Of a stretch of DNA of 64,000 bases, positions 4,335 through 49,780 are shown piece after piece. This DNA comes from Pomacea canaliculata (Eukaryota; Mollusca; Gastropoda; Architaenioglossa; Ampullariidae): positions 13,710,735-13,774,734 of the forward strand of contig NC_037593.1 of assembly GCF_003073045.1 (NCBI RefSeq), given 5' to 3'. Both the position numbers and the translations under genes were made by a program. The notes beneath the pieces were generated by a model, which worked only from the letters and a program-made list of their open reading frames with translations, had not been told where the DNA came from and ran no database searches. The number at the start of each line of letters is the position of its first letter. Position 1 is the stretch's first letter.

Positions 4335-5507
4335 ATGGCTCGCAGGCTGCTAGCAACAATCTTTGTAACCCTGTGCACCGCAACCCTGCTGACGATGCTT
4401 TATGTCAGCCAGTCACGTGACCCTGTCATTCTAGTTCATCCAGGTCCAGTCGATGTCCAGGTTAAACAACGCAGCACTAATCCGTGTCTGACATTGGGTA
4501 CTCACTCTTGGAGTGATAATATACCATACGGGCGGCCAGGGCTGCTGATAAACCCTTCAAACGGCTCTGACGTGTTGAGAGGGAGCACCACAGACATCGT
4601 CAACAGGATCTACAACAACATGTGTCCTGGTAACCAGACCCTGTCTAACGTACAATTCACTTTCCCAGACATACTGCTGATTGTCGACTTTAACTATCCT
4701 TCACAATACAATATCATTACCTACCTTGAACTTCTGTACAGGAGATATTTTCCTAATATTCTCTATTGTGGTCTGGAACCTGAAACTCTAAAGAAACAGA
4801 TTGTGGCTGAGAAACTGGGGTTCCCTATCTACTATTTGCATGCTCTGAGGGACACCTGGCAAACAAAGTACGAGTGTATTCAGCACGCCATGAAAATGTG
4901 TGACAACTACACCGGCTACCTGCTGATCGGCGACGACACTCTCATCAACATGACGAACTTTCAAAGAACTCCGAAACATAAAGCGATGGTGGGTGATCAG
5001 TTTGTCAAAACCGGACAACACGTGAACACCACACTTCACAAGTACTCGTGGCCATTTTGGGGTCTGGAAGGCGGGAGAAGTGCCATGCTGGGTGTGCTTA
5101 ACGAGCTCGCCTTTAAAGCGAACCGTGACAATGATCATCTTGCACAACAATTCCTTAGAAATTATTATTCCTTTGTCAACAACAGCACTATCTTTCACAT
5201 TATGCCGATCGACTTCCTGTACGTCCCCAAACGGCTGTCGTCCATTTTCCTCTACATGACGTCATTGTTTCGGAAATACAAGGCCATCGTAGAACTGGCG
5301 ATTCCGTTTTTTGTGTGTGGCCTGGAACACCCCGGGGACGTGTACTTTGTTAGAATGTGCAGTGTAAGAGGCAAGGACAGAGATAATTCACAGATACGTT
5401 TTGATAAGGACCTCGTGTACCTGCACCCTTTTAAGTACTATGCCAATTTTAAGAGCAAAACTCAAGGGAAGGACTTTATCTGTCAGAACTATTTATTAAA
5501 CAAGTAA
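4335..5507 (+). CDS. gene A: type II membrane protein, glycosyltransferase-like, 390 aa
   Basis: The start is the ATG 10 bp inside the exon that follows the acceptor at 4324; upstream in-frame sequence is intronic. Residues 5-24 form a hydrophobic signal anchor after a basic MARR start. Motifs: CLTLG..SW (51-59), GRPGLLIN (66-73), TFPDILLIVDFN (109-120), YLELLYRRYFPNILYCG (130-146), GYLLIGDDTLIN (194-205, a DxD-type acidic motif expected to bind metal and nucleotide sugar), EGGRSAMLGVLNEL (245-258), and C-terminal YLHPFKYY and FICQNYLL. Several N-glycosylation sequons (for example NQT, NYT, NMT, NTT, NST) fit a lumenal domain. The layout resembles Golgi glycosyltransferases, but the family is not recognised, so the function is inference. 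It differs from its paralogues near the end (CSVRGKDRD in place of LSLWGNDRD). Confidence 0.85.
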   Translation: MARRLLATIFVTLCTATLLTMLYVSQSRDPVILVHPGPVDVQVKQRSTNPCLTLGTHSWSDNIPYGRPGLLINPSNGSDVLRGSTTDIVNRIYNNMCPGNQTLSNVQFTFPDILLIVDFNYPSQYNIITYLELLYRRYFPNILYCGLEPETLKKQIVAEKLGFPIYYLHALRDTWQTKYECIQHAMKMCDNYTGYLLIGDDTLINMTNFQRTPKHKAMVGDQFVKTGQHVNTTLHKYSWPFWGLEGGRSAMLGVLNELAFKANRDNDHLAQQFLRNYYSFVNNSTIFHIMPIDFLYVPKRLSSIFLYMTSLFRKYKAIVELAIPFFVCGLEHPGDVYFVRMCSVRGKDRDNSQIRFDKDLVYLHPFKYYANFKSKTQGKDFICQNYLLNK

Positions 5508-5994
5508 CTATCGGCATGCGTGAGCATTTTACAACAACGTCTGCACAGTAATACTGATATCCCTACTACATTTTGCAAGTATGTTGTGCATATTTTCTGT
5601 CGTGTAGTGAATCCTTTATTAACCGAATGATAAATTAGAATAAAAATTTAAAGTACGCACTTAATCGCCATTGTTTTCTCTTCACCTGTATGGTCTGATG
5701 TTTAATTAAAAATTACAATTTACATCCCAAATCTAGTTATTTTATAAAATTCAGGTGAAGATGTTAGGAAATATTTTGACAATAGTGACACGAATAAAAC
5801 ACACCGCACCTAACTAACAGACGAATAACATAAAAAAGACTGTTCTGCAGTAACTTAGTTTAGGAGTTTCATAAGATGGCCTGTGCTTTTTCAAGCAATA
5901 TTTAGAAGTTTTCTTGAATTGAAAAATACCGCCTTGAAAGTTATATGCTTACCTTAAATGGGCACAAATCCAGAACCGTATTAAAAAGCTCAAA
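5508..5994 (+). other. gene A 3' flank
   Basis: Homologous to the flank 0.8-1.3 kb downstream of genes B-E, here fused directly behind the stop codon. It contains AATAAAAATTT near 5639, a plausible polyadenylation signal that is conserved in every unit. Confidence 0.55.
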
Positions 5995-6091
5995 ATTAAA
6001 CAATGTTGACAATGACAACCAGGACCGGGTCCGATGGCTGCGTGTGGTTGCGGCCCTATGCTCCACTGGGGACGAATAGGACAAAAGAAGA
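5995..6091 (+). repeat. SINE fragment at A/B junction
   Basis: Carries the 3'-tail-like gcggccctatgctccactgg and ends acaaaagaag, followed by AGTCGGATCTT (6092-6102). The upstream copy of that target duplication is missing because the unit A deletion ends inside or at the edge of the SINE. Related to the copies at 11981 and 17880 and to the tail at 42127. Confidence 0.65.
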
Positions 6092-6097
6092 AGTCGG

Positions 6098-6417
6098 ATC
6101 TTGTCTATTCTGTCCAAAACGAGTTTATTTATTTTATTTATTTATTTTTTACTGCCCAGCATACCAGGGTTTATTTTAGAAATATCTTAACATTTTCGCA
6201 GTTCTTTTCACAGAATTAACTTTACTCATGCATTGCCGAAAACAGTGTTAACAGGTGAGCAGTGTCACCTGTCGCATGCTAGCTCAGCGCGAGCCTGGGT
6301 TCTAGAGGGGAGGAGGGGGTTGCTGCGTCACTGTAATCTGACGCAATTTTGTTTTTGTTGTTTTTGACGTCATTGGCACGGTGGAGAAGGAAAGGAAAGT
6401 AGAGAGCGGCCATCAGG
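6098..6417 (+). promoter_or_regulatory. gene B promoter region and 5' noncoding exon
   Basis: The donor is CATCAGG|GTGAGT at 6417/6418 and the acceptor TTTTTCAG ends at 6838, giving a 421-bp intron. A full palindromic CRE, TGACGTCA, at 6365-6372 overlaps an inverted CCAAT (ATTGG). The E-box seen in A (CACGTG) reads CACCTG here. Confidence 0.5.
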
Positions 6418-6848
6418 GTGAGTAGCTGGAAAAGGAATCTGTTCTGAGTACATCGGAGTAACATCTGTCTGTGGGGATATTTTAGAGTCCAAAAGGAGAA
6501 GTGAGAGAGTGGCGCTTGGTAAATGTAGGTGTCCCCTTCTGTCCCAGACCCATTGTTTTGTTTTGTGTTTCCTACCTTGTTCCTTTTATTTCATTTGTTT
6601 GTTTTTATTAAACGTGTATTTGTAGCGTTCTTGCGTGTCCGTGTCGTTTGTTCTGCACTGGAGAGAGATTGGATTCGTTGCTACACGCGACAAGTAGCAA
6701 TGTTTATTTACTTTGTCTTCTTAGAAAGACTGATTGAACTGCTACGGATTGTCTGTATTTACAGTGTTGATTCATTTACCATGGTGGGTGTCTGATCTGT
6801 TTCTATTGTGTAAGTCTATGGACTGCTTGGTTTTTCAGATCCACTCTG

Positions 6849-8021
6849 ATGGCGCTCAGGCTGCTAGCAACAATCTTTCTAACCCTGTGCACCGCAACCC
6901 TGCTGACGATGCTGTATGTCAGCAAGTCACGTGACCCTGTCATCCTAGTTCAGCCCGATCCACTCGATGTCCAGGATGAACTACGCGGCACTAATCAGTG
7001 TCTGACATTGGGTAAACACTCTTGGAAATATAATGTAAAATACGGGCGGCCAGGGCTGCTGATAAACCCTTCAAAAGACTCTGACGTGTTGAGAGGGAGC
7101 ACCACAGACATCGTCAACAGGATCTACAACAACATGTGTCCTGGTTACCAGACCCTGCCTAACGTACAATTCACTTTCCCAGACATACTGCTGATTGTCG
7201 ACTTTAACCATCCTGCATACTACAATGTCATTCCCTACCTTGAACTTCTGTACAGGAGATATTTTCCTAATATTCTCTATTGTGGTCTGGAACCTGAAAC
7301 TCTAAAGGAACAGATTGTGGCTGAGAAACTGGGGTTCCCTATCTACTATTTGCAAGCACTGAAAGACAACTGGCAAACAAAGTACGAGTGTATTCAGCAT
7401 GCCATGAAAATGTGCGACAGCTTCAGCGGCTACCTACTGATCGGTGACGACACTCTCATCAACATGACGAACTTTCAAAGAACTCCGAAATATAAAGCGA
7501 TGGTGGGTGATGAGTTTGTCAAATCCGGACAATTCGTGACCACTACTTACTTCCAGTACTCGTGGCAATGGTGGGGTGTGGAAGGCGGGAGAAGTGCCAT
7601 GTTGGGTGTGCTTAACGAGCTCGCCTTTAAAGCGAACCGTGACAATGACCATCTTGCACAAGAATTCCTTAGAAATTATTATTCCTTTGTCAAATACAGA
7701 AACATCTTTTACTTTATGCCGATCGACTTCCTGTACGTCCCCAAACGGCTGTCGTCCATTTTCCTCTACATGACGTCATTGTTTCGGAAATACAAGGCCA
7801 ACGTGGAAGTGGCGATTCCGTTTTTTGTGTGTGGCCTGCAAAACCAAGTGGACGTGCACTTTGTTAGAATGCTCAGTCTATGGGGCAACGACAGAGATAT
7901 TTCGCAGAAACGTTTTGAGAAGGACCTCGTGTACCTGCACCCTTTTAAGTACCATGCCAATTTTAAGAGCACACCTCAAGCGAAGGACTTTATCTGTCAG
8001 AAGTATTTACGAAGTAAGTAA
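6849..8021 (+). CDS. gene B: type II membrane protein, glycosyltransferase-like, 390 aa
   Basis: Intact single coding exon starting at the ATG 10 bp after the acceptor (6838). The signal anchor is at residues 5-24. LLIVDFN (114-120), GDDTLIN (199-205) and EGGRSAMLGVLNEL (245-258) are all kept, as is the C-terminus YLHPFKYHANF...FICQKYLRSK. It keeps the VDFN form shared with A and genes 6 and 7, whereas C-E read VEFTEP. The patch at 223-246 (VKSG..VTTTYFQYSWQWWGV) and 276-284 (KYRNIFYFM) differ from A, and the latter loses the NxST sequon found in A and E. Probably a Golgi-resident glycan-modifying enzyme by layout; substrate unknown. Confidence 0.85.
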   Translation: MALRLLATIFLTLCTATLLTMLYVSKSRDPVILVQPDPLDVQDELRGTNQCLTLGKHSWKYNVKYGRPGLLINPSKDSDVLRGSTTDIVNRIYNNMCPGYQTLPNVQFTFPDILLIVDFNHPAYYNVIPYLELLYRRYFPNILYCGLEPETLKEQIVAEKLGFPIYYLQALKDNWQTKYECIQHAMKMCDSFSGYLLIGDDTLINMTNFQRTPKYKAMVGDEFVKSGQFVTTTYFQYSWQWWGVEGGRSAMLGVLNELAFKANRDNDHLAQEFLRNYYSFVKYRNIFYFMPIDFLYVPKRLSSIFLYMTSLFRKYKANVEVAIPFFVCGLQNQVDVHFVRMLSLWGNDRDISQKRFEKDLVYLHPFKYHANFKSTPQAKDFICQKYLRSK

Positions 8022-8131
8022 CTATCGGCATGCATGAACATTTCTTGGTCAACATCTGTGAAGCAAATAGTACTCAACGTCTAAGACTCTTATCTCCCTT
8101 TATTTTTGCATTTGACAAAGGGACATCTGTG

Positions 8132-8260
8132 ATGAGCCGCGCTTACACCATACAGCAGAAAAAAAGGAGTTTAAACCTGTGCAGAAAATTGGGGGACTTG
8201 ACGGGCCAGATGGAAGCAATCAAGAATGATCTCGATGGCTGCCAATCTGCGTACTTCTAA
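8132..8260 (+). CDS. conserved small ORF downstream of gene B (shortened copy)
   Basis: Begins MSRAYTIQQKKRSLNLCRKL and is shared with units C, D and E, where it runs on to CTSNLSA...LHSLTPTGFKD. In B a 2-bp loss near 8250 ends it early. It lies about 110 bp after the stop of the main gene. No domain is recognised. It could be 3' UTR, an exon or a repeat remnant. Confidence 0.2.
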   Translation: MSRAYTIQQKKRSLNLCRKLGDLTGQMEAIKNDLDGCQSAYF

Positions 8261-8440
8261 TCTTTCTGCCTCCGTTTCAATAATTATTTCCCTTCACAGT
8301 CTAACACCTACGGGCTTTAAAGACCTGCCCTCGACTGGTCCGAATTTAAGTCGATTGTGGTAATATAGCAGAAATATATTCTGTAATTTTCAACGACTTT
8401 AACACAACAGTTTATCTATTATCTAATTTCAAAGTTGGTA

Positions 8441-8589
8441 ATTTGCACCCATAGTTAGCAAGTCCTGCAAAATCTCGCCCCTACCCGCGAATAACGTGTG
8501 ACGTCACTGGACACCACCGGCTGTGACGTCACACGTTATTCGCGGGTAGGGGCGAGATTTTGCAGGACTTGCTAACTATGGGTGCAAAT
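8441..8589. repeat. perfect 67-bp inverted repeat with 15-bp spacer
   Basis: The left arm is 8441-8507, the spacer 8508-8522 (tggacaccaccggct) and the right arm 8523-8589. The arms match 67/67 by eye. Each arm ends in the palindrome GTGACGTCAC next to the spacer. Units C, D and E have only one arm, followed by the spacer in reverse orientation (agccggtggtgtcca in C and D). It is either a fold-back duplication unique to B or the last complete copy of a hairpin element. Confidence 0.95.
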
Positions 8590-8644
8590 TGTCACTGTAG
8601 GCGTGTAATGACCTAAAGGTGAAGGGTTACATCAGGCTTGTCAG

Positions 8645-8783
8645 ATGATCTTTATTTATTTTGCTCTAGTAGCGAAGACGAGTTTAACAGGTTGTATTCC
8701 GACATTGAAAGTATTAAAACTCACGTGTTTGAGTCTGAGTTTCACAATACTCAGGTTAGAATCACCAAAGACACAATCTTTAG
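8645..8783 (+). other. exon-like conserved open segment, unit B
   Basis: An open frame runs SDDLYLFCSSSEDEF...ESEFHNTQVRITKDTIF and ends at a good donor TTTAG|GTAAGAAA. A possible acceptor CTTGTCAG precedes it. Repeated at 14542, 20732 and 26569, and in divergent form at 27486-27684. The role is unknown; no acceptor/donor partner could be assigned. Confidence 0.35.
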
Positions 8784-9574
8784 GTAAGAAACGACAAAGA
8801 ACGACTTCACAAATACCATGTGGTAAGCAATTATGTTGTGCATATGTTCTGTCGTGTAGCGAATCCATGTATCAACCGAATGATAAATTAGAATAAAAAT
8901 TTAAAGTACGAACTTATTCACCATTGTTTTCTCTTCACCTGTATGGTCTGACTGAAGTTCAAGTGAAAATTACAATGTTCATCGCAAATCTAATCATTTT
9001 ATAAAATTCAGGTGAGGATTTTAGGAAATATTTCGACAATAGTGACACGTATAAAACACACCCCACTTAACTAACAGACGAATGACACAAAAAAAACTGC
9101 TCGGCAGTCACTTATTTTACAAGTTTCATGAGATGGCCTGTGCTTTTTCAATTAATATGAGAATATTTAGTAGTTTTCTTGAATTGATCAATACCGCCTT
9201 AAAAGTTATATGCTTACCTTAAAGGCGCACAAATCCAGGACCGTATTAAAAAGCTCAAAATTAAACAATGTTGACAATGACAACGGGATCACTTGATCGT
9301 CTGGCGCAACCAATACAGGATGATGCTATGGAAATGAATACTCAAATCTTCCGTCTGTCTAATCAATGTGCCGCACAACATCAGTAAACATCCAGAATAT
9401 TTATCATCACCTTCCTCAAACAAATCATCATTATGTCCAACAATATGTCCACTTGTCGAGTTAATAAGCTATCACACTCACCCACTCCCACCCACCCACT
9501 GAAAGCCCCTCCCACTCACTCAACTATTCACTTACTCACCCACCCATCCACTACAAAAGAACTCGCTGGATGAT

Positions 9575-9967
9575 TTGAAGAAAAAAGCAGAGAGTGTATT
9601 ACATCATCAACGCTTTGTCGTCTTGTGGCATGACCAAATGACAGTTACATGTGACTTAGTTTTTGATAAACTTTCTGGGGAACTTGTTGGGTTTGTTGGT
9701 AGTCAGGATGAACAGGCATCAACCCCTGCCACCCATGCATTAGTTTTTTACATTGTAGGCTTAACTACAAATATCAGCAGAAGCATTGGTTTCTTTGGCA
9801 CACAATCAGTTACTGCAGATGCTTTGTTTACACTTTTCTCACAGCCTTTGGTCTTGTTGAGGAAGCAGGGTTTAAAATGGTATGATCCACAAGTGATAAG
9901 GCCTCACCAAATAAAAGGCTCTATGAAATGCATGGCAGTGGTGCAGATATTTGTTATAAAACAATAA
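9575..9967 (+). pseudogene. P-element-like transposase fragment (RNase H-like part), unit B
   Basis: The open stretch reads LWHDQMTV...LVFDKLSGELVGFVGS, then ATHALVFYIVGL and SVTADALFTLF. This follows the P-element/THAP9 RNase H-like domain pattern (D.M.....YD...GELVGF.D, then ATH.LVF and .GVTAD.L). The first acidic residue (D in HDQM) is retained. About 130 residues remain of a protein normally several times longer, with no THAP domain or terminal repeats beside it, so it is a fragment. Absent from units A and E. Confidence 0.65.
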
Positions 9968-10820
9968 ATCTGTCTGCCAGTGAGATATATATTTTTTTCT
10001 GACGTTCCTCACTTACTCAAAACAGTGAGAAACAATTTATATAATTCTGGATTAGGTCGGCAGACGCGCTATCTTTGGTTAAATGGCCAACATCTGCTTT
10101 AGGCAAGTGTCATTGATATCTTTAACAGAGATGCATCTAGTCAGCTGTACAGAACTAAACTTACGATCATGTATATCTGACACCTACTTCTATCGTGAAT
10201 GTTAGATTGGCAAGCCAGGTGTTTAGGGGGACAATAAAATTACCATCTTCATACCTTTAATTCCCATTATACCAAATATGCTTGCGAATGCCATTTTCCA
10301 ATCCAAGCAAAGTAGTATGAAAAGGAAGTAGCACATAAAAAACATGGGCAGTCAATAACATAAATCAGTAATCAGTTGATGTCTTTGCAAAAAACTATTA
10401 AAGTGACCTCATTTAAAAATAGTGTAGAGATTATTGACCAATATTCTGAAAATTACACCCCATTTACACATTTGAACTAGTTGCCTTCAAACCTTTTCTA
10501 AGTCCCTTTAGTTTTTTGGTTGAAGTATGTCTTGACAGTTTAAAATTTTCCATAAACTTCTTGCACTTGTGGTGTGCCCGAACCATAGAATAGGATTTAA
10601 CAATCAGAAATAAAATATTTTCTTTTATTTTCTGTGATGCTAAGATGCTATACATTTGATCATATAAGCAAGTCCTACCTGACTATGCTTGGCAACAATT
10701 AGCATAATATAAATCGAAGGACAAAGTATGCATCAGTCTTCGTATTGTAAAAACAGAGTTTGGAGTAAGAAAAGCGGCTATTGTCTTCCCTTATCTATTA
10801 GGCGATGCTTTTTTTTTTGA
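9968..10820. other. unit spacer, nothing recognised
   Basis: Conserved between units B, C and D but without a frame, motif or repeat I can identify. The short antisense frame at 10464-10655 is conserved only because the DNA is recently duplicated. Confidence 0.5.
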
Positions 10821-10821
10821 C

Positions 10822-10939
10822 TTACACTTGGAGACAAATTTTGAGTAAATATAATTTGTTTCGTAAGGTCTGCTTGGAGACCTTGCAAGAGTCCTGCAAT
10901 GTTTTGCGGTCAGATGACTTCATATCCGTAATATAGATG
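10822..10939 (+). other. exon-like segment 1, unit B
   Basis: Equivalent to 22917-23062 of unit D, which reads TYTWRQILSKYNLFRKVCLE...RSDDFISD and ends in a donor GATG|GTAAGT. Unit B lacks about 22 bp near 10928, which breaks the frame. Unrecognised. Confidence 0.3.
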
Positions 10940-11250
10940 GTAAGTACAGGCAGTAAAGTGCTACACTCTTTTGCGTACAGTATTAACATATATTTATATT
11001 TAGAAAATATCAGCAGTTTGAAGCAAATACTAAATGTGTGCGGGAGCAATATTTTTCTTATGTATCGTCATAGTGCTTTTTTATCTAGAAAATGATATAT
11101 GATGTGAATTCAGCTAAGCTTAGTTCCAATTTATTTTTGTCTTTTAAATGCACTCTTCATATATTACTCATGCGGTTGCAGTAAACTGTTCTGAATTTTG
11201 TTCTGAATTTATGTCAAATGAGATCACATTGTATATTGCTACTTTTTCAG

Positions 11251-11490
11251 GACCATCACTTCTTCAGGACTTACAATTCTCATACTGAGAAAAAAGACAT
11301 TTTATTATGCATAAAAGAACTAATACCTGAACATGACACAGCTTCTGAACCTTCTGATAGATCATTGACTCAAATTCTGCACAGAGGGGACCTTATAAAA
11401 TTGAAACCTACTGTACTTGAGATTTTTCTAAGACTGGAGTCTATATTTAGACAATGCTTTGATGGACAGATCCTGAAGTTCCTGAAGTAA
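11251..11490 (+). other. exon-like segment 2 (terminal exon form), unit B
   Basis: After a strong acceptor CTACTTTTTCAG, 79 codons are open: DHHFFRTYNSHTEKKDILLC...LIPEHDTASEPSD...FLRLESIFRQCFDG, ending LKFLK and a stop. Kept open in C and D. It may be the 3' exon of an old gene or of the P-like transposon whose RNase H part lies 1.3 kb upstream. The splice phase with segment 1 does not obviously keep this frame, so I do not link them. Confidence 0.35.
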
Positions 11491-11741
11491 AACAAAAGAC
11501 GAGAAAGAACACACCCATTAGGATCACCAGTAATCGGTTTTCTAGAAACAGACACATTTCTGCCATTCATTCCAGTTGACTTATAGAAAAGGCCACGGTA
11601 CGGAATCGGTACTTCTAAAAGTTGTAAACGATCTACTCCATTGAGGTTCATCAGCATATTTCTCATGTCTACAGAGGTGCTTACCTTCAACTTCATAGGA
11701 TCAGTAACTATTGTCATCATCTCACCACCGATTCAACTAAA

Positions 11742-11892
11742 ACTCTCATCTGCGCCTTTGTGCTGTCGAGGATGGACTATCGCAATTCTCTTTTTGCTGG
11801 TATCTTCTTGACAGACTTTAAAGGATCCAGAGTAATGCTGCTCGCCTCATCTGTAGACCATCTACATGTGAACATATATCAACTACCTATAA
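11742..11892 (+). repeat. LINE reverse-transcriptase remnant, unit B
   Basis: Copy of the 3232-3385 remnant (SRMDYRNSLFAG here, followed by the N.AARLICR...CEHI block in another frame). Confidence 0.7.
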
Positions 11893-11980
11893 ATGTAAGC
11901 AAATAAAAAATGCGTTCAAGCTTGTTTTAGATGTAAGTGATTTTAAATGTTAATAAAAAGCATAACTGTAGTCGGACCTT

Positions 11981-12065
11981 AGAAAGGGATGCACAGGACC
12001 GGATCCGATGGCGGCGGGTGGTTGCGGCCCTATGCTCCACTGGGGGCGAATAGGACAAAAGAAGA
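11981..12065 (+). repeat. SINE fragment with 11-bp target duplications, B/C junction
   Basis: An 85-bp insert flanked by AGTCGGACCTT at 11970-11980 and 12066-12076. Units A and E have the empty site. The insert contains gcggccctatgctccactgg and ends acaaaagaaga. Confidence 0.8.
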
Positions 12066-12073
12066 AGTCGGAC

Positions 12074-12390
12074 CTTGTCTATTCTGTCCAAAACGAGTTA
12101 ATTTATTTTATTTATTTATTTTTTACTGCCCAGCATACCAGGGTTTATTTTAGAAATCTTAACATTTTCACAGTTCTTTTCACAGAATTAACTTTACTCA
12201 TGCATTGCCGAAAACAGTGTTAACAGGTGAGCAGTGTCACGTGTCGCATGCTGGTTCAGCGCGAGCCGGGGTTCTAGATGGGAGGAGGGGGTTGCTGCGT
12301 CACTGTCATCTGACGCAATTTTGTTTTTGTTGTTTTTGACGTCATTGGCACGGTGGGAGAAGGAAAGGAAAGTAGAGAGCGGCCATCAGG
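12074..12390 (+). promoter_or_regulatory. gene C promoter region and 5' noncoding exon
   Basis: Donor CATCAGG|GTGAGT at 12390/12391; acceptor GTCTTTCAG ends at 12811; the intron is 421 bp. CRE TGACGTCA at 12337-12344 next to ATTGG. E-box CACGTG near 12239. Confidence 0.5.
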
Positions 12391-12821
12391 GTGAGTAGCT
12401 GGAAAAGGAATCTGTTCTGAGTACATCGGAGTAACATCTGTCTGTCGGGATATTTTAGAGTCCAAAAGGAGAAGTGAGGGAGTGGCGCTTGGTATATGTA
12501 GGTGTCCCCTTCTGTCCCAGACCCATTGTTTTGTTTTGTGTTTCCTACCTTGTTCCTTTTATTTCATTTGTTTGTTTTTATTAAACGTGTATTTGTAGCG
12601 TTCTCGCGTGTGCTTGTCGTTTGTTCTGCACTGGAGAGAGATTGGATTCGTTGTTACACGCGACAAGTAGCAATGTCTATTTACTTTGCCTTCTTAGAAA
12701 GACTGATTGAACTGCTACGGATTGTCTGTATTTACAGTGTTGATTCATTTACCATGGTTGGACTCTGATCTGTTTCTATTGTGTGAGTCTATGGACTGCT
12801 TGGTCTTTCAGATCCACTCTG

Positions 12822-13994
12822 ATGGCGCTCAGGCTGCTAACAACAATCTTTCTAACCCTGTGCACCGCAACCCTGCTGACGATGCTGTATGTCAGCCAGT
12901 CACGTGACGCTGTCATCCTAGTTCAGCCCGATCCACTCGATGTCCAGGATGAACTACGCAGCACTAATCAGTGTCTGACATTGGGTACTCACTCTTGGAA
13001 AAATAATGTAAAATACGGGCGACCAGGGCTGCTGATAAACCCTTCAAAAGACTCTGACGTGTTGAGAGGGAGTACCACAGACATCGTCAACAGGATCTAC
13101 AACAACATGTGTCCTGGTCACCAGACCCTGCCTAACGTACAATTCACTTTCCCATACATACTGCTGATTGTCGAATTTACAGAACCTGCATACTACAATG
13201 CCATTCCCTACCTTGAACTTCTGTACAGGAGATATTTTCCTAATATTCTCTATTGCGGTCTCGAACCTGAAACTCTAAAGGAACAGATTGTGGCTGAGAA
13301 ACTGGGGTTCCCTATCTACTATTTGCAAGCTCTGAATGACACCTGGCAAACAAAGTACGAGTGTATTCAGCATGCCATGAAAATGTGCGACAACTTCACC
13401 GGCTACCTGCTGATCGGCGACGACACTCTCATCAACATGACAAACTTTGAAAGAACTCCGAAATATAAAGCGATGGTGGGTGATGAGTTTGTCAGATCCA
13501 GACTATTCGTGATCACTACTCACTTCCAGTACTCGTGGCCGTGCTGGGGTTTGGAAGGCGGGAGGAGTGCCATGCTGGGTGTGCTTAACGAGCTCGCCTT
13601 TAAAGCGAACCGTGACAATGATCATCTTGCACAACAATTCCTTAGAAATTATTATTCCTTTGTCAACCACAGCAACATCTTTTACTTTATGGCGATCGAC
13701 TTCCTGTACGTCCCCAAACGGCTGTCGTCCATTTTCCTCTACATGACGTCATTGTTTCGGAAATACAAGGCCAGCGTGGAAGTGGCGATTCCGTTTTTTG
13801 TGTGTGGCCTGCAACACCCAGAGGACGTGCACTTTGTTAGAATGCTCAGTCTATGGGGCAACGACAGAGATAATTCGCAGAAACGTTTTGAGAAGGACCT
13901 CGTGTACCTGCACCCTTTTAAGTACCATGCCAATTTTAAGAGCACACCTCAAGGGAAGGACTTTATCTGTCAGAAGTATTTACGAAGTAAGTAA
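12822..13994 (+). CDS. gene C: type II membrane protein, glycosyltransferase-like, 390 aa
   Basis: Intact. The start is the ATG 10 bp after the acceptor; the in-frame extension upstream is intronic and has no ATG. GDDTLIN (199-205) and EGGRSAMLGVLNEL (245-258) are kept. The strand before the acidic motif reads YILLIVEFTEPAYY in place of DILLIVDFN.P, so the VDF aspartate (residue 118) is a glutamate, as in D and E. The variable patch reads VRSRLFVITTHFQYSWPCWG, with a cysteine where the paralogues have a tryptophan or phenylalanine; D shares this. Otherwise the layout is as in gene A. Confidence 0.85.
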   Translation: MALRLLTTIFLTLCTATLLTMLYVSQSRDAVILVQPDPLDVQDELRSTNQCLTLGTHSWKNNVKYGRPGLLINPSKDSDVLRGSTTDIVNRIYNNMCPGHQTLPNVQFTFPYILLIVEFTEPAYYNAIPYLELLYRRYFPNILYCGLEPETLKEQIVAEKLGFPIYYLQALNDTWQTKYECIQHAMKMCDNFTGYLLIGDDTLINMTNFERTPKYKAMVGDEFVRSRLFVITTHFQYSWPCWGLEGGRSAMLGVLNELAFKANRDNDHLAQQFLRNYYSFVNHSNIFYFMAIDFLYVPKRLSSIFLYMTSLFRKYKASVEVAIPFFVCGLQHPEDVHFVRMLSLWGNDRDNSQKRFEKDLVYLHPFKYHANFKSTPQGKDFICQKYLRSK

Positions 13995-14103
13995 CTATCG
14001 GCATGGATGTACATTTCTTGGTCAACATCTGTGAAGCAACTAGTACTCAACGTCTAAGACTCTTATCTCCCTTTATTTTTGCATTTGACAAAGGGACATC
14101 TGT

Positions 14104-14323
14104 GATGAGCCGGGCTTACACCATACAGCAGAAAAAAAGGAGTTTAAACCTGTGCAGAAAATTGGGGGACTTGACGGGCCAGATGGAAGCAATCAAGAAT
14201 GATCTCGATGTCTGCCAATCTGCGTGTACTTCTAATCTTTCTGCCTACGTTCCAGTAATTATTTCCCTTCACAGTCTAACACCTACTGGCTTTAAAGACC
14301 TCCTCCGACTGGTCCGAATTTAA
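14104..14323 (+). CDS. conserved small ORF downstream of gene C
   Basis: 73 codons, MSRAYTIQQ...RKLGDLTGQMEAIKNDLDVC...LHSLTPTGFKDLL. Lysine-rich start, no signal peptide, no known domain. The full-length form is also seen in E (26119-26337). Conservation may only reflect recent duplication. Confidence 0.3.
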
Positions 14324-14541
14324 GTAGATTCTGGTAATATAGTAGAAATATATTCTGTAAGTTTCAGCGACTTTAACACAACAGTTTATCTACTATCTAA
14401 TTTCAAGGTTGGCGATTTGCACCCATAGCAAAATCTCGCCCCTACCCGCGATTAACGTGTGACGTCACAGCCGGTGGTGTCCACCCTGTCACTGTAGGCG
14501 TGTAATGACCTAAAGGTGACGGGTTACATCAGGCTTGTCAG

Positions 14542-14680
14542 ATGATCTTTATTTATTTTGCTCTAGTAGCGAAGACGAGTTTAACAGGTTGTCTTCCGAC
14601 ATTGAAAGTATTAAAACTCACGTGTTTGAGTCTGAGTTTCACAATACTCAGGTTAGAATCACCAAAGACACAATCTTTAG
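14542..14680 (+). other. exon-like conserved open segment, unit C
   Basis: Near-identical to 8645-8783, with the same TTTAG|GTAAGAAA donor. Confidence 0.35.
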
Positions 14681-15471
14681 GTAAGAAACGACAAAGAACG
14701 ACTTCACAAATACCATGTGGTAAGCAATTATGTTGTGCATATGTTCTGTCGTGTAGCGAATCCATGTATCAACCGAATGATAAATTAGAATAAAAATTTA
14801 AAGTACGAACTTATTCACCATTGTTTTCTCTTCACCTGTATGGTCTGACTGAAGTTCAAGTGAAAATTACAATGTTCATCGCAAATCTAATCATTTTATA
14901 AAATTCAGGTGAGGATTTTAGGAAATATTTCGACAATAGTGACACGTATAAAACACACCCCACTTAACTAACAGACGAATGACACAAAAAAAACTGCTCG
15001 GCAGTCACTTATTTTACAAGTTTCATGAGATGGCCTGTGCTTTTTCAATTAATATGAGAATATTTAGCAGTTTTCTTGAATTGATCAATACCACCTTGAA
15101 AGTTATATGCTTACCTTAAAGGCGCACAAATCCAGGACCGTATTAAAAAGCTCAAAATTAAACAATGTTGACAATGACAACGGGATCACTTGATCGTCTG
15201 GCGCAACCAATACAGGATGATGCTATGGAAATGAATCCTCCCATCTTCCGTCTGTCTAATCAATGTGCCGCACAACATCAGTAAACATCCAGAATATTTA
15301 TCATCACCTTCCTCAAACAAATCATCATTATGTCCAACAATATGTCCACTTGTCGAGTTAATAAGCTATCACACTCACCCACTCCCACCCACCCACTGAA
15401 AGCCCCTCCCACTCACTCAACTATTCACTTACTCACCCACCCATCCACTACAAAAGAACTCGCTGGATGAT

Positions 15472-15849
15472 TTGAAGAAAAAAGCAGAGAGTGTATTAGA
15501 TCATCAACGCTTTGTCATCTTGTGGCATTACGAAATGACAGTTACATGTGACTTAGTTTTTGATAAACTTTCTGGGGAACTTGTTGGGTTTGTTGGTAGT
15601 CAGGATGAACAGGCATCAACCCCTGCCACCCATGCATTAGTTTTTTTACATTGTAGGCTTAACTACAAATATCAGCAGAAGCATTGGTTTCTTTGGCACA
15701 CAATCAGTTACTGCAGATGCTTTGTTTACACTTTTCTCGCAGCCTTTGGTCTTGTTGAGGAAGCAGGGTTTAAAGTGGTATGATCCACAAGTGATAAGGC
15801 CTCACCAAATAAAAGGCTCTATGAAATGCATAGCAGTGGTGCAGATATT
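15472..15849 (+). pseudogene. P-element-like transposase fragment, unit C
   Basis: Copy of the unit B fragment. A one-base gain near 15645 breaks the frame after ATHALVF, and the conserved acidic residue reads Y (LWHYEMTV). Clearly not functional. Confidence 0.6.
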
Positions 15850-16715
15850 TGTTATAAAACAATAAATCTGTCTGCCAGTGAGATATATATTTTTTTCTGA
15901 CGTTCCTCACTTACTCAAAACAGTGAGAAACAATTTATATAATTCTGGATCAGGTCGGCAGACGCGCTATCTTTGGTTAAATGGCCAACATCTGCTTTAG
16001 GCAAGTGTCATTGATATCTTTAACAGAGATACATCTAGTCAGCTGTACAGAACTAAACTTACGATCATGTATATCTGACACCTACTTCTATCGTGAATGT
16101 TAGATTGGCAAGCCAGGTGTTTAGGGGGACAATAAAATTACCATCTTCATACCTTTAATTCCCATTATACCAAATATGCTTGCGAATGCCATTTTCCAAT
16201 CCAAGCAAAGTAGTATGAAAAGAAAGTAGCACATAAAATACATGGGCAGTCAATAACATAAATCAATAATCAGTTGATGTCTTTGCAAAAAACTATTAAA
16301 GTGACCTCATTTAAAAATAGTGTAGAGATTATTGAATAATATTCTGAAAATTACACCCCATTTACACATTTGAACTAGTTGCCTTCAAATCGTTTCTAAG
16401 TCCCTTTAGTTTTTTGGTTGAAGTATGTCTTGACAGTTTAAAATTTTCCATAAACTTCTTGCACTTGTGGTGTGCCCGAACAATAGAATAGGATTTAACG
16501 ATCCGAAATAAAATATTCTCTTTTATTTTCTGTGATGCTAAGATGCTATACATTTGATCATGTAAGCAAGTCCTAACTGACTCTGCTTAGCAACAATTAG
16601 CATAATATAAATCGAAGGACAAAGTATGCATCAGTCTTCGTATTGTAAAAACAGAGTTTGGAGTTAGAAAAGCGGCTATTGTCTTCCCTTATCTATTAGG
16701 CGATGCTTTTTTTTT
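15850..16715. other. unit spacer, nothing recognised
   Basis: Counterpart of 9968-10820. Confidence 0.5.
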
Positions 16716-17149
16716 TTGACTTACACTTGGAGACAAATTTTGTGTAAATATAATTTGTTTAGTAAGGTCTGCTTGGAGACCTTGCAAGAGTCCTGCAATG
16801 CTTTGCGGTCAGATGACTTCATATCCGTAATATAGATGGTAAGTACAGGCAGTAAAGTGCTACACTCTTTTGAGTACTGTATTAACATATATTTATATTT
16901 AGAAAATATCAGCAGTTTGAAGCAAATACTAAATGTGTGCGGGAGCAATATTTTTCTTATGTATCGTCATAGTGCTTTTTTATCTAGAAAATGATATATG
17001 ATGTGAATTCAGCTAAGCTTAGTTCAAATTTATTTTTGTCTTTTAAATGCACTCTTCATATATTACTCATGCGGTTGCAGTAAACTGTTCTGAATTTTGT
17101 TCTGAATTTATGTCAAATGAGATCACATTGTATATTGCTACTTTTTCAG

Positions 17150-17389
17150 GACCATCACTTCTTCAGGACTTACAATTCTCATACTGAGAAAAAAGACATT
17201 TTATTATGCATAAAAGAACTAATACCTGAACATGACACAGCTTCTGAACCTTCTGATAGATCATTGACTCAAATTCTGCACAGAGGGGGCCTTACAAATT
17301 TAAAACCTACTGTACTTGAGATTTTTCTAAGACTGGAGTCTATATTTAGACAATGCTTTGATGGACAGATCCTGAAGTTCCTGAAGTAA
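17150..17389 (+). other. exon-like segment 2, unit C
   Basis: Same acceptor and 79 open codons as 11251-11490, with a few substitutions (HRGGLTNLKPT). Segment 1 precedes it at about 16720-16838 with the same 22-bp loss as in B. Confidence 0.35.
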
Positions 17390-17639
17390 AACAAAAGACG
17401 AGAAAGAACACACCCATTAGGATCACCAGTAATCGGTTTTCTAGAAACAGACACATTTCTGCCATTCATTCCAGTTGACTTTTAGAAAAGGCCACGGTAC
17501 GGAATCGGTACTTCTAAAAGTTGTAAACGATCTACTCCATTGAGGTTCATCAGCATATTTCTCATGTCTACAGAGGTGCTTACCTTCAACTTCATAGGAT
17601 CAGTAACTATTGTCATCATCTCACCACCGATTCAACTAA

Positions 17640-17787
17640 AACTCTCATCTGCGCCTTTGTGCTGTCGAGGATGGACTATCGCAATTCTCTTTTTGCTGGT
17701 ATCTTCTTGACAGACTTTACAGGATCCAGAGTAATGCTGCTCGCCTCATCTGTAGACCATCTACATGTGAACATATATCAACTACCT
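17640..17787 (+). repeat. LINE reverse-transcriptase remnant, unit C
   Basis: Copy of the remnant at 11742-11892. Confidence 0.7.
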
Positions 17788-17879
17788 ATAAATGTAAGCA
17801 AATAAAAAATGCGTTCAAGCTTGTTTTAGATGTAAGTGATTTTAAATGTTAATAAAAAGCATAACTGTAGTCGGACCTT

Positions 17880-17964
17880 AGAAAGGGATGCACAGGACCG
17901 GGTCCGATGGCGGCGGGTAGTTGCGGCCCTATGCTCCACTGGGGGCGAATAGGACAAAAGAAGA
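17880..17964 (+). repeat. SINE fragment with 11-bp target duplications, C/D junction
   Basis: AGTCGGACCTT at 17869-17879 and 17965-17975. Same insertion site as at the B/C junction, hence the same ancestral insertion copied by duplication. Confidence 0.8.
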
Positions 17965-41305: not shown

Positions 41306-41617
41306 GTTATGGAGGTGTTTATACTAGAAGTCAATCACGGTAGGATATTATCTTTTGCTTTCCGATGACGTGTTCTCGGTTGACAGCAAAATGATTAAAA
41401 ATTGTGTTGTTGCTTTTGCTATTGATGTTGTTATCATATTCTGTGTGCTTGCGTTTTCCTTGTCTGTTCTCTTGATTTTTTTGTCCATCAACTCATGAAG
41501 GCTTTGATGGAGTATAGTCCCCCCCGCAAAAAAAAAAAGTTTATGTTACGCTTGCCTTTTGTGCTTACTGCCAAAGTTCAAAGTTCAATCAAAGTGAACT
41601 CATAATTCTCAAGAGGC

Positions 41618-41970
41618 TGTGGAGTTGTTCACATCAGACATCCTGTACCTACATTCTTTTAAGTATGGTTCAGATTTTAAGACACCTGTGGGGCAAGCGT
41701 TTATATGTGAGACATACCTGCGTGACGTGTAAGTGTGAAAAGAGCAAACGTGAGTGTTAAGGCATGTGTGAGATGTTGGTGAAGGTGCACATAAATTCCA
41801 GTATGTTCTTAATCATTGGTGTTAAAGTCAACGTACCGCCATTTGTGTGCACGGGTGGACAGTGTAGTAAAAATCATGCGAACACCTTTATTTGGCTTTT
41901 TTTTTTCTATTTGTAATGGAATTTATTACACTCCGATTGAATATACTTTGTTTTATTTAGAAACCATCCA
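41618..41970 (+). pseudogene. 3'-end fragment of a gene-7-like paralogue
   Basis: Translates to AVELFTSDILYLHSFKYG, then SDFKTPVGQAFICETYLRDV and a stop at 41730. Matches the last 37 residues of gene 7. The following 200 bp match the gene 7 3' flank (gcaaacgtgagtgttaaggc and onward), so genomic duplication, not retrocopying, made it. No 5' part precedes it. Confidence 0.8.
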
Positions 41971-43904: not shown

Positions 43905-44045
43905 TACTGTAACATCTCCGCAGTACAGCATGAAGGCGAAGTGCCGCTCATAGAGGAGGTCGAAATAGGTGGTCACGTGGTACAGACTGGGCGAGATGAC
44001 GTCGATGATTAGCAAGGTGAGAGGAATTTCCAGCATGTTAACAGG
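43905..44045 (-). pseudogene. gene-family fragment 1
   Basis: The minus strand reads LEIPLTLLIIDVISPSLYHV, then TTYFDLLYERHFAFMLYCGD, clearly the LLIVDFNSP..YRVIPYLELLYRRHFADILYCGD block of gene 7. Only this block remains. Confidence 0.8.
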
Positions 44046-44429: not shown

Positions 44430-44690
44430 TATGCACTAAGTGGTACTTCATCTGCCAGGCATAACTGGAGATACAGAGGAAGTGGCGAAGATAGACCAGC
44501 GTTTCTGGACCCTTTCCGCAGGATGTCAACGAAGTGCCGCCGATAGAGCAACTCGAGCTAGGGGGTCACTCAGTACAAATTGGGAGAGTTGAAGTCGATT
44601 ATGAGCAGGATGTCCAGAAAGGTGAGCGGAGCTTTGGGTATATCAGATGAGTCTGGACTTATCTCACTGTGCAGACGACAGGTCTTATCC
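44430..44690 (-). pseudogene. gene-family fragment 2
   Basis: The minus strand reads APLTFLDILLIIDFNSPNLY and, past stop codons, LELLYRRHFVDIL. Further upstream there are remains of the SSWTKEG...HSKMCPESS region. Closest to gene 7 (49240-49560). A degraded tandem neighbour of fragment 1. Confidence 0.8.
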
Positions 44691-44699
44691 CTCCTTTCA

Positions 44700-47600
44700 T
44701 CCACGAGTAGTTGGCAAGACTGATGATAACCCTAACCCTAGAAGCAGCACCATAGTGACGTCACAAATGTACATGAAAACACCTAATCAAAGATAGTCTC
44801 AACTTTCTCCATGATCTGTAGCCAAGAAGAGAAAATCGTATCCATTATGTTTTCTGCATAAAAATATGAGTCAGAATGACATTAAACTTGATTTTGACTT
44901 TTTAGGACACATTGTGTGACTTCTTTGTCGACAAAAAGACATTTTCAACCTGTTGCCTGTAGACCACAAGGTATTGATCATTGGAAGCTATTTACTTGCT
45001 CGCTGCGTCAGCAGCCAATCAGACAGTTTAGTGTACTCACCACTTTGAAGTTTGGATTTTTTTTTCGCTCGAATCAAAGGCTTGCATCTTGACACCACGC
45101 AGAGAGTTTTATTGAAAAGATTTATGCTCCCATTATTTGTGTATTGCTTTGCTAGCGTAGCAACCGCTGAACCCATCAACGCACAGGTAGCAAGTGTTTC
45201 AAGCTGTGAAATGCAGCAGCCGTTATTCTGAGTGTTGAACGCAAACAAACACTCAGCTTTATCTAAATTATGCCGAGGTGTGAGTTACGTGGAAATAAAT
45301 TTGTTTGTCACGCAAATGCAGCAGGTTTTCAGAGAATGCACTGTTCTTTTTATAGTTTGCCAATATTGAAAGGAAAATACTCTAAAAATATTGTCATAAC
45401 TGCGGGTGGAACTTTTATGTATTATACACTGCTGTTTTCGGGTGTTGATGACCAGTCATCTCGTATTAATGACCGCTGATGTCTCTTATTGCGGGATATC
45501 TGACACCAATGTCTTTAAGAGGCTGAAACACGCTCCATTTTCAATCTCCAACATATGGAAATATTACTCGATCCTCTAATTAATTTGAAACCCTAGAAAA
45601 AAAAACACAATTTCGTTTCCCATAATGCTGCGTGATGTGTGCCTAATTTTCAAAGTTACTGAGCTGTACATTCATTTTATCTCTTTCAGGTACTACTTAC
45701 ATTGATACAAAAAGACTGTGTTGGTATTCAGATGAAGTGGTAGACATAAAATTTTAGTTCACCGGTCTCAGCGCTAATCGACTTTAGCGGACTTTTCACC
45801 TGAACATCCGGATTGCCACTTAGGACCTTAATAGAAGTTAAGACAAAACTAAGTCAGACTTAGGACCTAGCATGTAAACCAGGCCTGTGGTATTAGTCAC
45901 CTCTAAGGTCGGCGTCCATTGTATATAGCAAATTTTGCGATTGTAATGTTCATCTTGAAATACATGCACTGTGAGACTATGTCGTACAAATATAAACCAC
46001 GAAGCTGTGGTTAAAGTGGTTTCATCAAAAGAGCCAAAGAAACTGCAAGTGTATACAATGTACAGGTTTTGCGACAGGTAAAATATTTCATTCGTACAGT
46101 AAATAGAGCGAATCTATAAGCAAGTTGGTCACAAACTTTTTGAGTTGTGTGACAATTTATTTTCAGACACGTGAACTGGCCTTTCAATGGTTAATTCTTT
46201 TTCTTCTTTCTAATCATCCCCAGTGCAGCATATGGCTTCAATGGTTAATAGGTTGATAAAATGTCAACATTAATGTCTGCATAATTAGCTTCAAAAATCA
46301 AGGATATATATATATGGCCTATAATATCACAAATATGGTGAAGTAATTATACTTACAACTATTGCACATCCAGCTCTCCAAATTAGAAAAAAATGTATTC
46401 TAAGTGTCGGGTTTTTCACAGAACATTTAATTTTACAGTATTTATCATGGTAATTAATTAAATTTGTTTTTTCAACATAATTATACACACCCATGCAAAC
46501 ACTGACACTGTCACACGACGTAAGTTACCTCCGTGTGAGAGAGAGAAAGAATGAGTGCGTGTGTGTTGGGAGGAGGGCTGGATGGATCGATAGAAGTGTT
46601 CCTGAAATCAGATTAATTTTAAAATTAAAAAATGATGATGATGATGATGATGATGATAATAAAAACTGGAGTTTTGTTCCTTACTTAGATTACTCTGCAA
46701 CTGTCAAAAGTTATATCAGCAATTTCGTTTAAAATAGCATATCCCATCTATGTCTCTGTTGTTATGTGACACTTTTTGACATTAATAAAGTTTAAGAAAG
46801 TTCCTAGCATGTATTAGTCAACTCTGCCACGTGTTTGCGATAGAGTGCTCCGTTATAATGTCAAAAATATATATGTCAAAAATGTCAATCATATCACATT
46901 CACACTCCTGAACATCGCCGCTACCTTCACCTGTTTTGCACTCAGTTGACCTCAGATCTCAGGGCCTCAACTTTTATCTGAAACTTTGCGCCACTCAGTC
47001 TCCTGGTTATGTCCCTTTGCTTCCCATTTTGTTATTTGGACTCCTAAAACAGTTGAAGGTACTATTTACCTCATTAAACGACGTTGAAGTCTATCACGGT
47101 CAGGTGACACAGTGTATGTGGGTTGGTGCGAGTTGTGTGGATACGTCACCACGTTACGAACAGGGCGGGGCGCACGTGCCGAACGAGTGACTGCAAAAAC
47201 CTGCGTGTATAGGTCATGTAAACCTATATGTCGATGAACCTGTATATATTATAGAAGGTTATAGAGGAGATATATAAATATCAAAGGCTGATAAGATCTG
47301 AATTTTTCTGTAAGGTAGATATATTTGCGAACGAGCAGCTGTTACTGAAACATTTGAACCCATGCAAACGTTATTTTTTACCTGTTATCTCTAATGTATT
47401 ATCTCACATCTTAAGTGTTTCGTCGATATAATGGAAAATCCTTCTATTTTTCCAACCTCTTCTTTATATCTCATGCATTCGCCGAACGCCTCTACACGAG
47501 TATGACTGTGCAAGATATATACAGCATCTCTATTTAATATAAAATTAAATGAAACTAGTTTTCAAACACAGCTGCTAAAACATCACCGAGCACAAATAGG

Positions 47601-48090: not shown

Positions 48091-48091
48091 C

Positions 48092-48290
48092 ACACTTACG
48101 TCACGCAGGTAAATCTTATATATAAATGTCTACCCTACAGGTGTCTTCAAATCTGAGCTATATTTAAAAGGTTGCAGGTACAGGATGTCTGACGTGGACA
48201 ACTGCACAGCCTTGCCCCTGTTGCCTCCCCTTAACACACACGCACAGATCTTGCACCTTGGCCAGGATGACCTCACCCGTTGCACGAGAT
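48092..48290 (-). pseudogene. 3'-end fragment of gene 7, tandem copy
   Basis: The minus strand carries EVILAKVQDL, then a short disrupted insertion, then AVQLSTSDILYLQPFKYSSD and a broken tail ending IYLRDVS. It lies 0.3 kb downstream of gene 7 in the same orientation. Confidence 0.75.
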
Positions 48291-48607
48291 TGAATTGTCT
48301 TAGGTAACATTCAAAAACAATACAGCAACATCGTTATAACCTACAGAAAACCAAATTTAGTAAACCTAATATCTATGGAGGTAGACAAACCATACAGTTA
48401 CACATAACCTTAGAGAAAAACTTCATTTGAAATAAATTCCATCACAACTAGTAAAAAATGAAGGGGTTCGCATGATTTTTTGCTGCACACAAATGGAAGA
48501 TACGTTGACTTTAACACCAATGATTAAGAGTTGCAGACATACTGGAATTTCTGGGCACCTTGACCAGCAACACTTCACACATGCCTTAACACTCACGTTT
48601 GCTTTTT

Positions 48608-49780
48608 TCACAATGACGCGTCACGCAGGTAAGTCTCACATATAAACTCTTGCCCCGCAGGTGTCTTAAAATCTGTACCATACTTAAAAGGATGCAGGTA
48701 CAAGATGTCTGATGTGAACAACTGCACAGCCTTGTCCCTGTTGCCCCACAGATCCTGCACCTTGGCCAGGATGACGTCTTTTGGATGCGCGAGGCCGCAC
48801 GCGAAGAAGGGCATGGCCAGTTCGATGTTGGTCCCATACTTCCGGAACAGTGACGTCATGTAGAGAAAGAAGGGGGCCAGCCTGGTGGGCACGTACACGA
48901 AGTCTGTGGCCACGCGGTAGAAGATGGTGCTGGAGTTGACGAAGGTGTAGTAGCGGTGCAAAAACTGCTTCGCGAAGACGTCATGCTCGTGCAGCGCCCG
49001 GTACACCAGCTCGTTCAGCACGCCCAGCATGGCGTTTCTTCCGCCTTCCAGCTCCCACCACATCCAGTCTTCATTGAAATGCGTGGTGTTGACGACCCAG
49101 CGCAAGAAATCCTTGCCTACCAGGACCCTGTCCTTGCCGAGAGCCTTCAGGGTCTTGACGTTGACCAGCGTGTCGTCGCCGATCAGGAGGTAGCCCTTGT
49201 AGTCGCCGCACATCTTCATGGCGTACTCCAGACACCGGTACTTCATCTGCCAGGCGTAGTCGGGGATGTAGAGAAAATACACGGGAAAAGTGATGTTCTT
49301 CTGGACAATGATGTCTTTGAGAGTCTCCGGATCGTCTCCGCAGTACAGGATGTCGGCGAAGTGCCGCCTATAGAGAAGCTCCAGGTAGGGTATAACTCGG
49401 TACAAATTTGGCGAGTTGAAATCAACTATCAGCAAGATGTCCGGAAAAGTTAGCGGAACCTTGGGCAGGGCAGATGATTCTGGACACATCTTGCTGTGCA
49501 GATGGCCAACCACGTCCATTGCGTTTCCTTCTTTTGTCCAGGACGAGTAGACGGTTGAGTTGATGAACAAGCCGGGAACCTCGGGCTGCACTTTCCCGTG
49601 CCATGGATGCCTGCGCACTGGAAGGCACACGAAAGGGTCACCGACAGGGTTTATCGTTTGCTCCTCGGAGCGATGGACTGTGAAAAACATTCCAGTAGTG
49701 GTCCAGACTGACAGCAGTATGGTGAGAACCGTCGCACAGCACAGGACAAGGTAGACCACCAAGGCTTTTTTGTGCCCCAT
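48608..49780 (-). CDS. gene 7: divergent glycosyltransferase-like paralogue, 390 aa
   Basis: Intact. The start chosen is the ATG at 49780 (MGHKKALVVYL), which gives 390 aa as in A-E. The frame runs 5 codons further up without an ATG, and an acceptor TTTTCCCAG ends near 49797. Signal anchor at residues 6-25, CLPVRRHPW (52-60), EVPGLFIN (67-74), LTFPDILLIVDFNSP (110-124), IPYLELLYRRHFADILYCG (130-148), GYLLIGDDTLVN (196-207), LEGGRNAMLGVLNELVY, TDFVYVPTRLAPFFLYM and YLHPFKYGTDF...FICETYLRDASL. Coding G+C is high, as in gene 6. It is the only intact gene of the second cluster, and its pieces recur at 41.6, 43.9, 44.5 and 48.1 kb. Confidence 0.85.
   Translation of the reverse strand: MGHKKALVVYLVLCCATVLTILLSVWTTTGMFFTVHRSEEQTINPVGDPFVCLPVRRHPWHGKVQPEVPGLFINSTVYSSWTKEGNAMDVVGHLHSKMCPESSALPKVPLTFPDILLIVDFNSPNLYRVIPYLELLYRRHFADILYCGDDPETLKDIIVQKNITFPVYFLYIPDYAWQMKYRCLEYAMKMCGDYKGYLLIGDDTLVNVKTLKALGKDRVLVGKDFLRWVVNTTHFNEDWMWWELEGGRNAMLGVLNELVYRALHEHDVFAKQFLHRYYTFVNSSTIFYRVATDFVYVPTRLAPFFLYMTSLFRKYGTNIELAMPFFACGLAHPKDVILAKVQDLWGNRDKAVQLFTSDILYLHPFKYGTDFKTPAGQEFICETYLRDASL

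What the first reader, a model, noticed from the sequence alone, without database searches (positions are those of the whole stretch)
4335..49780. Local expansion of an unnamed type II glycosyltransferase-like family
Seven gene copies (six intact, one disrupted) and at least four fragments of one family lie within 46 kb. The sequence shows a signal anchor, sequons and a GDDTL(I/V)N acidic motif in all copies. Glycosyltransferase function is inferred from layout and the acidic motif; no known family was recognised. A tandem, recently amplified set suggests selection for dosage or diversity in a glycan or secretory pathway.
Basis: partly seen in the sequence, partly recalled or inferred. Interest (0 to 1): 0.8.

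Follow-up and report, generated by a model that had tools for sequence, protein, structure and literature searches.

The report
Fast-evolving apple-snail Golgi sugar-transferase array
An apple-snail chromosome carries a row of thirteen related genes for probable sugar-adding Golgi enzymes of a family known from plants as STELLO, reduced to one part of the plant protein and changing quickly, which makes them candidates for making a snail-specific sugar structure whose purpose is not yet known.

The parts
4335..5507 (+). Copy c7 (clade A), 390 aa, intact; Pfam STELLO 33.1 bits over cut-off 27.8
6849..8021 (+). Copy c8 (clade A), 390 aa, intact; one sequon only
12822..13994 (+). Copy c9 (clade A), 390 aa, intact
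19019..20186 (+). Copy c10 (clade A), frameshifted near codon 329; up to there 98.5% identical in protein to c9
24830..26002 (+). Copy c11 (clade A), 390 aa, intact
30250..31407 (+). Copy c12 (clade C), 385 aa, intact; structure predicted; Pfam STELLO 33.4 bits. Acidic pair D199 D200, further invariant D287 and E314; H358
48608..49780 (-). Copy c13 (clade B), 390 aa, intact; Pfam STELLO 23.0-23.2 bits, below the cut-off
41580..41726 (+). Fragment of the C-terminal end, nearest to c13
43914..44033 (-). Fragment, middle of the domain
44440..44725 (-). Fragment in two frames, middle of the domain, nearest to c13
48091..48225 (-). Fragment of the C-terminal end, nearest to c13
6020..27003 (+). Tandem segmental repeat, spacing 5.8-6.2 kb, carrying c8 to c11 (the last unit is partial)

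Best explanation
The array encodes Golgi type II glycosyltransferases made of the C-terminal GT-A domain of the STELLO/DUF288 family alone. An intron-less founder lacking the N-terminal STELLO region started the family (inferred); duplication of a roughly 6-kb unit and recombination between copies multiplied clade A (shown in sequence). The lumenal domain would bind a nucleotide sugar and metal through the last aspartate of the xDD motif and a C-terminal histidine, use E314 as the base, and transfer the sugar to an acceptor held by variable loops (inferred from fold, spacing and conservation). Positive selection on about a fifth of the codons, with the xDD motif and about 55% of codons frozen, points to diversification of what the enzymes act on, not to decay.
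Against: No activity, expression or localisation was measured. Zhang 2016 (passages): DD591-592AA in an Arabidopsis STELLO still complemented, while DXD residues of the GT75-like region, absent here, were required. The first letter of DxD is G in the array and the presumed base is Glu, not Asp. No solved glycosyltransferase matches by sequence. Foldseek TM-scores of the c12 hits are low (0.31 or less on the query), and below the top the Foldseek lists mix in methyltransferases and dehydrogenases. Recombination is detected (PHI, 0 of 1000 permutations as low) and synonymous-rate variation was not modelled. The raised divergence between units is not confined to coding sequence: flanking stretches reach 5.0% upstream and 9.8% downstream in unit 8 against 9. 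Candidate selected sites are only modestly enriched in possible acceptor loops, in regions chosen after the fact (17 of 70 against 18 of 214, p=0.001), and a second loop test was negative.
Confidence: 0.6

Rival explanations
1. A non-catalytic GT-A-like Golgi factor that, as plant STELLO does for cellulose synthase, assists assembly or traffic of another glycan synthase or secreted protein; the diversification follows its partners.
For: STELLO's documented role is in assembly and traffic of cellulose synthase complexes, of the truncated forms only the C-terminal one restored seedling growth on isoxaben (its exact extent was not in the passage), and DD591-592AA was tolerated (passages). The array lacks the N-terminal region with the required DXD residues.
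Against: D199, D200 and E314 are invariant in 34 of 34 aligned proteins, and codons 181-210 around xDD are the most constrained 30-codon window in clade A (ratio 0.22) while about a fifth of codons change fast, as expected of a working active site.
Confidence: 0.25
2. A recently amplified array under relaxed constraint: copies drift and are lost, and conversion plus drift mimic selection.
For: Clade-A dN/dS is 0.71 over 36 pairs; one frameshifted copy, fragments nearby, and a broken relative on C8; recombination detected.
Against: 12 of 13 copies open. Drift gives no class with omega near 3: 0 of 40 no-selection mosaic simulations reached the observed statistic. 54-56% of codons have omega near 0.
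Confidence: 0.13
3. The copies are partly an assembly artefact (haplotypes or repeats misplaced in tandem).
For: Parts of units 8, 9 and 10 between the genes differ by only 0-2.5% per 200 bases over 1.8 kb (14503-16298 in unit 9).
Against: Coding regions of units 8 and 9 differ by 2.5-8.5%; apart from c9-c10 (98.5%) clade-A pairs are 81.8-91.5% identical in protein and copies of different clades 44-50%, too diverged for haplotypes of one locus as a rule.
Confidence: 0.02

Closest known systems
Plant STELLO1/2 (PF03385, formerly DUF288), Arabidopsis
   Same: Same Pfam family by score for part of the copies; single N-terminal transmembrane segment, C-terminus predicted lumenal.
   Different: Array proteins are about 390 aa and match only profile positions 205-305 of 387; the N-terminal region with the DXD residues that matter in STELLO is absent; no partner is known here (not tested).
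Longer gastropod relatives: Lottia P0010 (658 aa), Patella P0033 (590 aa), and the intron-bearing gene on C3 of this genome
   Same: Same C-terminal domain with the xDD motif (for P0010 also the D and E columns).
   Different: P0010 and P0033 are 205-273 residues longer, on the N-terminal side; the C3 gene has a GT-AG intron just before the xDD motif where the array has none.
GT31 beta-1,3-glycosyltransferases (B3GalT5, B3GNT2, CHSY3/CHPF)
   Same: Best structural matches of the Lottia homologue; spacing from G-loop to base to C-His agrees with B3GNT2.
   Different: No sequence match to a Pfam GT31 model at E<=1; Glu for Asp at the presumed base; Ser, Gly or Ala at the first DxD position.

Membership tests
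PF03385 STELLO (DUF288) | Score above the curated Pfam cut-off | tested here: met
   c7 33.1 and c12 33.4 against 27.8, c13 23.0; P0003 30.0 and P0004 30.7. The genome search finds 7 places, 4 of 7 over the cut-off. So met for part of the copies only.
PF03385 STELLO (DUF288) | Full-length domain, profile 1-387, including the part before position 200 | tested here: not met
   Matches of the array copies run 205-305 only; alignment A1 has gaps in them where relatives carry that part.
Plant STELLO proteins | GT75-like region with required DXD residues DD205-206, DVD297-299 (Zhang 2016, passages) | tested here: not met
   Array proteins have about 80 residues between the anchor and the domain; no room for such a region.
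Plant STELLO proteins | Golgi location with lumenal C-terminus; interaction with cellulose synthase | not testable with these tools
   Only the N-terminal hydrophobic segment could be checked: strongest hydrophobic stretch in 13 of 13 copies.
GT-A fold glycosyltransferases | GT-A fold | tested here: met
GT-A fold glycosyltransferases | DxD motif for metal and donor | tested here: inconclusive
   Second and third positions D199 D200 in 34 of 34; first position S 20, G 12, A 2. B3GNT2 coordinates metal through the last Asp (passages).
GT-A fold glycosyltransferases | xED base and C-His | tested here: inconclusive
   E314 in 34 of 34; the H358 column has H in 17, gap in 9, other letters in 8 of 34 (in A1 10 of 14 rows have H and the other four end early or have a different tail). 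Placement rests on spacing, not on coordinates.
CAZy GT31 (Pfam Galactosyl_T, Fringe, CHGN) | Sequence match to the family models | tested here: not met
   hmmscan at E<=1 lists only STELLO for c12, c13, c7, and no GT31 model among the 11 families listed for 34 members. Fold similarity alone is not membership.

The most novel reading that the evidence does not exclude
The C-terminal part of the STELLO family, whose acidic pair was dispensable in plants, is a self-sufficient glycosyltransferase in snails, and in apple snails it has become a tandem family that diversifies by recombination and positive selection, producing individual- or species-specific glycans, for instance on mucus, blood cells or egg fluid. 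One bold sub-case: since the fold is nearest to beta-1,3-galactosyltransferases, some members build galactogen, the egg galactan of snails, whose synthase I recall as unidentified.
Probability: 0.3. Interest if true: 0.75.

Novelty: new variant of a known kind. Interest (0 to 1): 0.5.

Why it matters
It makes a family studied mainly in plant cell walls testable in an animal, in a minimal one-domain form that separates its parts. It also gives a glycosyltransferase array with a strong signal of diversifying selection on the enzyme itself, which could link glycan variation to conflict with parasites, predators or mates. The species is a major invasive pest, and the family offers lineage-specific candidates for its mucus or egg glycans.

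Tried and rejected
Sequence search of solved structures with c12 alone and with two alignments gave no glycosyltransferase: one weak THUMP-domain hit, none, six unrelated weak hits. NCBIfam gave nothing for 5 proteins. Rfam gave nothing in the window. A third protein search with a longer first sequence, meant to reach plant STELLO and fix the numbering of DD591-592, found only Lottia and Patella, so the equivalence of DD591-592 with GDDT stays an inference. Loops at the C-terminal ends of the core strands were tested as the place of the selected sites and rejected (6 of 35 against 29 of 249, p=0.41); only the loop after xDD (9 of 35, p=0.02) and the stretch before the C-terminal histidine (8 of 35, p=0.05) stand out. 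An M2a fit failed once for numerical overflow and was repeated with clipped parameters. Papers: five gene identifiers of the cluster are in no paper of the held library; no paper there holds Pomacea, glycosyltransferase, positive selection and tandem duplication together; the main texts of the 2026 Pila/Pomacea paper and the egg capsule paper hold neither 'glycosyltransferase' nor 'STELLO' (term searches). The galactogen idea found no support in the passages read.

Rows dropped or left out: c10 was cut before its frameshift for pairwise and tree work and left out of the codon-model set. Alignment A1 holds 11 of the 21 proteins plus three window copies. Alignment A2 leaves out P0002, P0005, P0007, P0008 (the first two are c13 and c11; the last two are annotated models that end in other sequence). 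Pfam was run on 10 of 21 proteins. The family tree used the 13 copies and 6 of 33 proteins.

Full report
What is there. The window is C4:13710735-13774734 of a 440-Mb genome. Cluster proteins in public databases on a contig of the same length as C4 (34,737,321 bases) carry NCBI names from Pomacea canaliculata. Seven copies lie in the window, six open and one frameshifted, with four fragment sites. Their motif GGNGAYGAYACNYT occurs seven times against 0.06 expected by chance. The array is larger than the window: six more open copies lie upstream, so 13 copies span C4:13664599-13760514, 96 kb, 12 of 13 open. Relatives found elsewhere in the genome are few (the tool calls its counts lower bounds): a single-exon gene on C1 with one frame break near its end (an intact relative, P0009, is 456 aa), a broken clade-B-like copy on C8, and a distant intron-bearing gene on C3.

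Family. Pfam names it: PF03385, STELLO, formerly DUF288. c7 and c12 pass the curated cut-off, c13 does not; c6 and c5 pass through their database models P0003 and P0004. At E<=1, 32 of 34 aligned relatives match. In the array copies the match covers profile positions 205-305 of 387 only. Longer relatives carry a further part N-terminal to the shared domain (alignment; P0022 and P0029 match profile 51-120 and 54-125). In the C3 gene a GT-AG intron lies just before the xDD motif (read by eye); the array copies run through this place without an intron. The simplest reading is an intron-less, N-terminally reduced founder copy that was then duplicated. This is inference; retroposition was not shown.

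Tree and duplication. A protein tree (19 sequences, 379 columns) gives clade A (c1-c5, c7-c11; support 100), clade B (c6, c13; 100) and clade C (c12 with P0001; 100), with P0009 outside the array (support 82). Within the window c8 to c11 sit in direct repeats spaced 5.8-6.2 kb. Between units 8 and 9 the stretch 14503-16298 (unit 9 coordinates) differs by 0-1.5% per 200 bases, the coding region by 2.5-8.5%; the nearer flanks are also raised, to 5.0% upstream and 9.8% downstream. Since synonymous sites are affected too (c8 against c9 dS 0.053), this looks like a mosaic from conversion or unequal exchange, not selection alone. A PHI test finds recombination in the coding region of clade A (0 of 1000 permutations as low, 125 informative sites).

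Selection. Over the 36 pairs of the nine intact clade-A copies dN/dS is 0.71; it is 0.44 for c6-c13, and 0.14-0.31 for those pairs between clades where it could be computed, near saturation at synonymous sites. A codon-model script gives M1a to M2a improvements of 2dlnL 51.4 (one tree) and 44.8 (three segment trees), with 54-56% of codons at omega near 0 and 22-24% at omega near 3. To guard against recombination I simulated 40 data sets without positive selection, each with ten different window trees, and fitted them with one tree: the largest statistic was 25.4, against 68.2 for the real data handled the same way (18% of codons at omega 3.8 in that fit). The surroundings of xDD are the most constrained window (181-210: ratio 0.22). 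Candidate sites are enriched in the loop after xDD and in the stretch before the C-terminal histidine taken together (17 of 70 against 18 of 214, p=0.001), but these regions were chosen after looking, and the test of the strand-end loops was negative. Synonymous-rate variation was not modelled, and the code is my own script, not codeml.

Active site. Passages of PMC7948508 and PMC7185993 name four GT-A landmarks: DxD, glycine-rich loop, xED base, C-His. In B3GNT2 these are D247 (last of DxD), 305-307, D333, H376. In c12 the candidates are D200, D287, E314, H358. From the middle of the loop to the base is 27 residues in both; base to histidine 43 and 44; DxD to base is 28 residues longer in c12. 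D199, D200, D287 and E314 are invariant in 34 of 34; the histidine column has H in 17, gaps in 9 and other letters in 8; in alignment A1 10 of 14 rows have H and the other four end early or have a different tail. Glu instead of Asp as base and Gly instead of Asp as first DxD letter depart from the common pattern. I had no coordinates, so a shared pocket is inferred.

What speaks against activity. Passages of Zhang et al. 2016 (PMC4906169): DXD residues in the GT75-like region of STELLO are needed; DD591-592AA is tolerated; of the truncated forms only the C-terminal one restored seedling growth on isoxaben; relatives in nematodes, fungi and molluscs are noted as distinct. The snail array keeps only the part where DD591-592 should lie (my inference; I could not align the plant sequence). 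So either the snail domain works as an enzyme on its own, or it keeps a non-catalytic helper function. The constrained motif amid fast change favours the first.

Function. Commitment: Golgi glycosyltransferases, diversified in acceptor or donor use, 0.6. Glycan and tissue are open. No expression data could be examined; the NCBI name 'isoform X2' for the c6 protein suggests that the annotation pipeline modelled two transcripts, no more. The egg galactan galactogen is mentioned as a bold sub-case on fold similarity alone.

Verdict. The library searches named in Tried and rejected found no paper describing this array.

Noticed in passing
35831-41308: Gypsy-type LTR retrotransposon between c12 and c13: LTRs of about 1.06 kb, 98.6% identical, gag with a SCAN-like domain and zinc knuckle, reverse transcriptase and RNase H. 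The open frame is interrupted by one in-frame stop ending at 39206, and no integrase was listed for the two frames scanned.
   Followed up: partly
9503-9967, 15400-15783, 21476-22048: The 6-kb units carry a transposase remnant; PF21787 (TNP-like RNase H) was matched in the first and third, and the second, not scanned, is similar by eye.
   Followed up: partly
L017:3484-8091 (minus strand): Distant intron-bearing STELLO-like gene on C3 (weak Pfam match, 15.5 bits, in one piece); an upstream frame holds 'DSD' where Lottia and Patella have no acidic pair, which suggests that the N-terminal DXD decays in limpets. The correspondence is by eye.
   Followed up: partly
L015:3791-5213: Single-exon relative on C1 with a frame change near its C-terminal end; P0009 from an unnamed source is intact over the same region.
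   Followed up: no
L016:4253-5132: Broken clade-B-like copy on C8 (67-76% identical to c13 in pieces), so members have also moved off the array.
   Followed up: no
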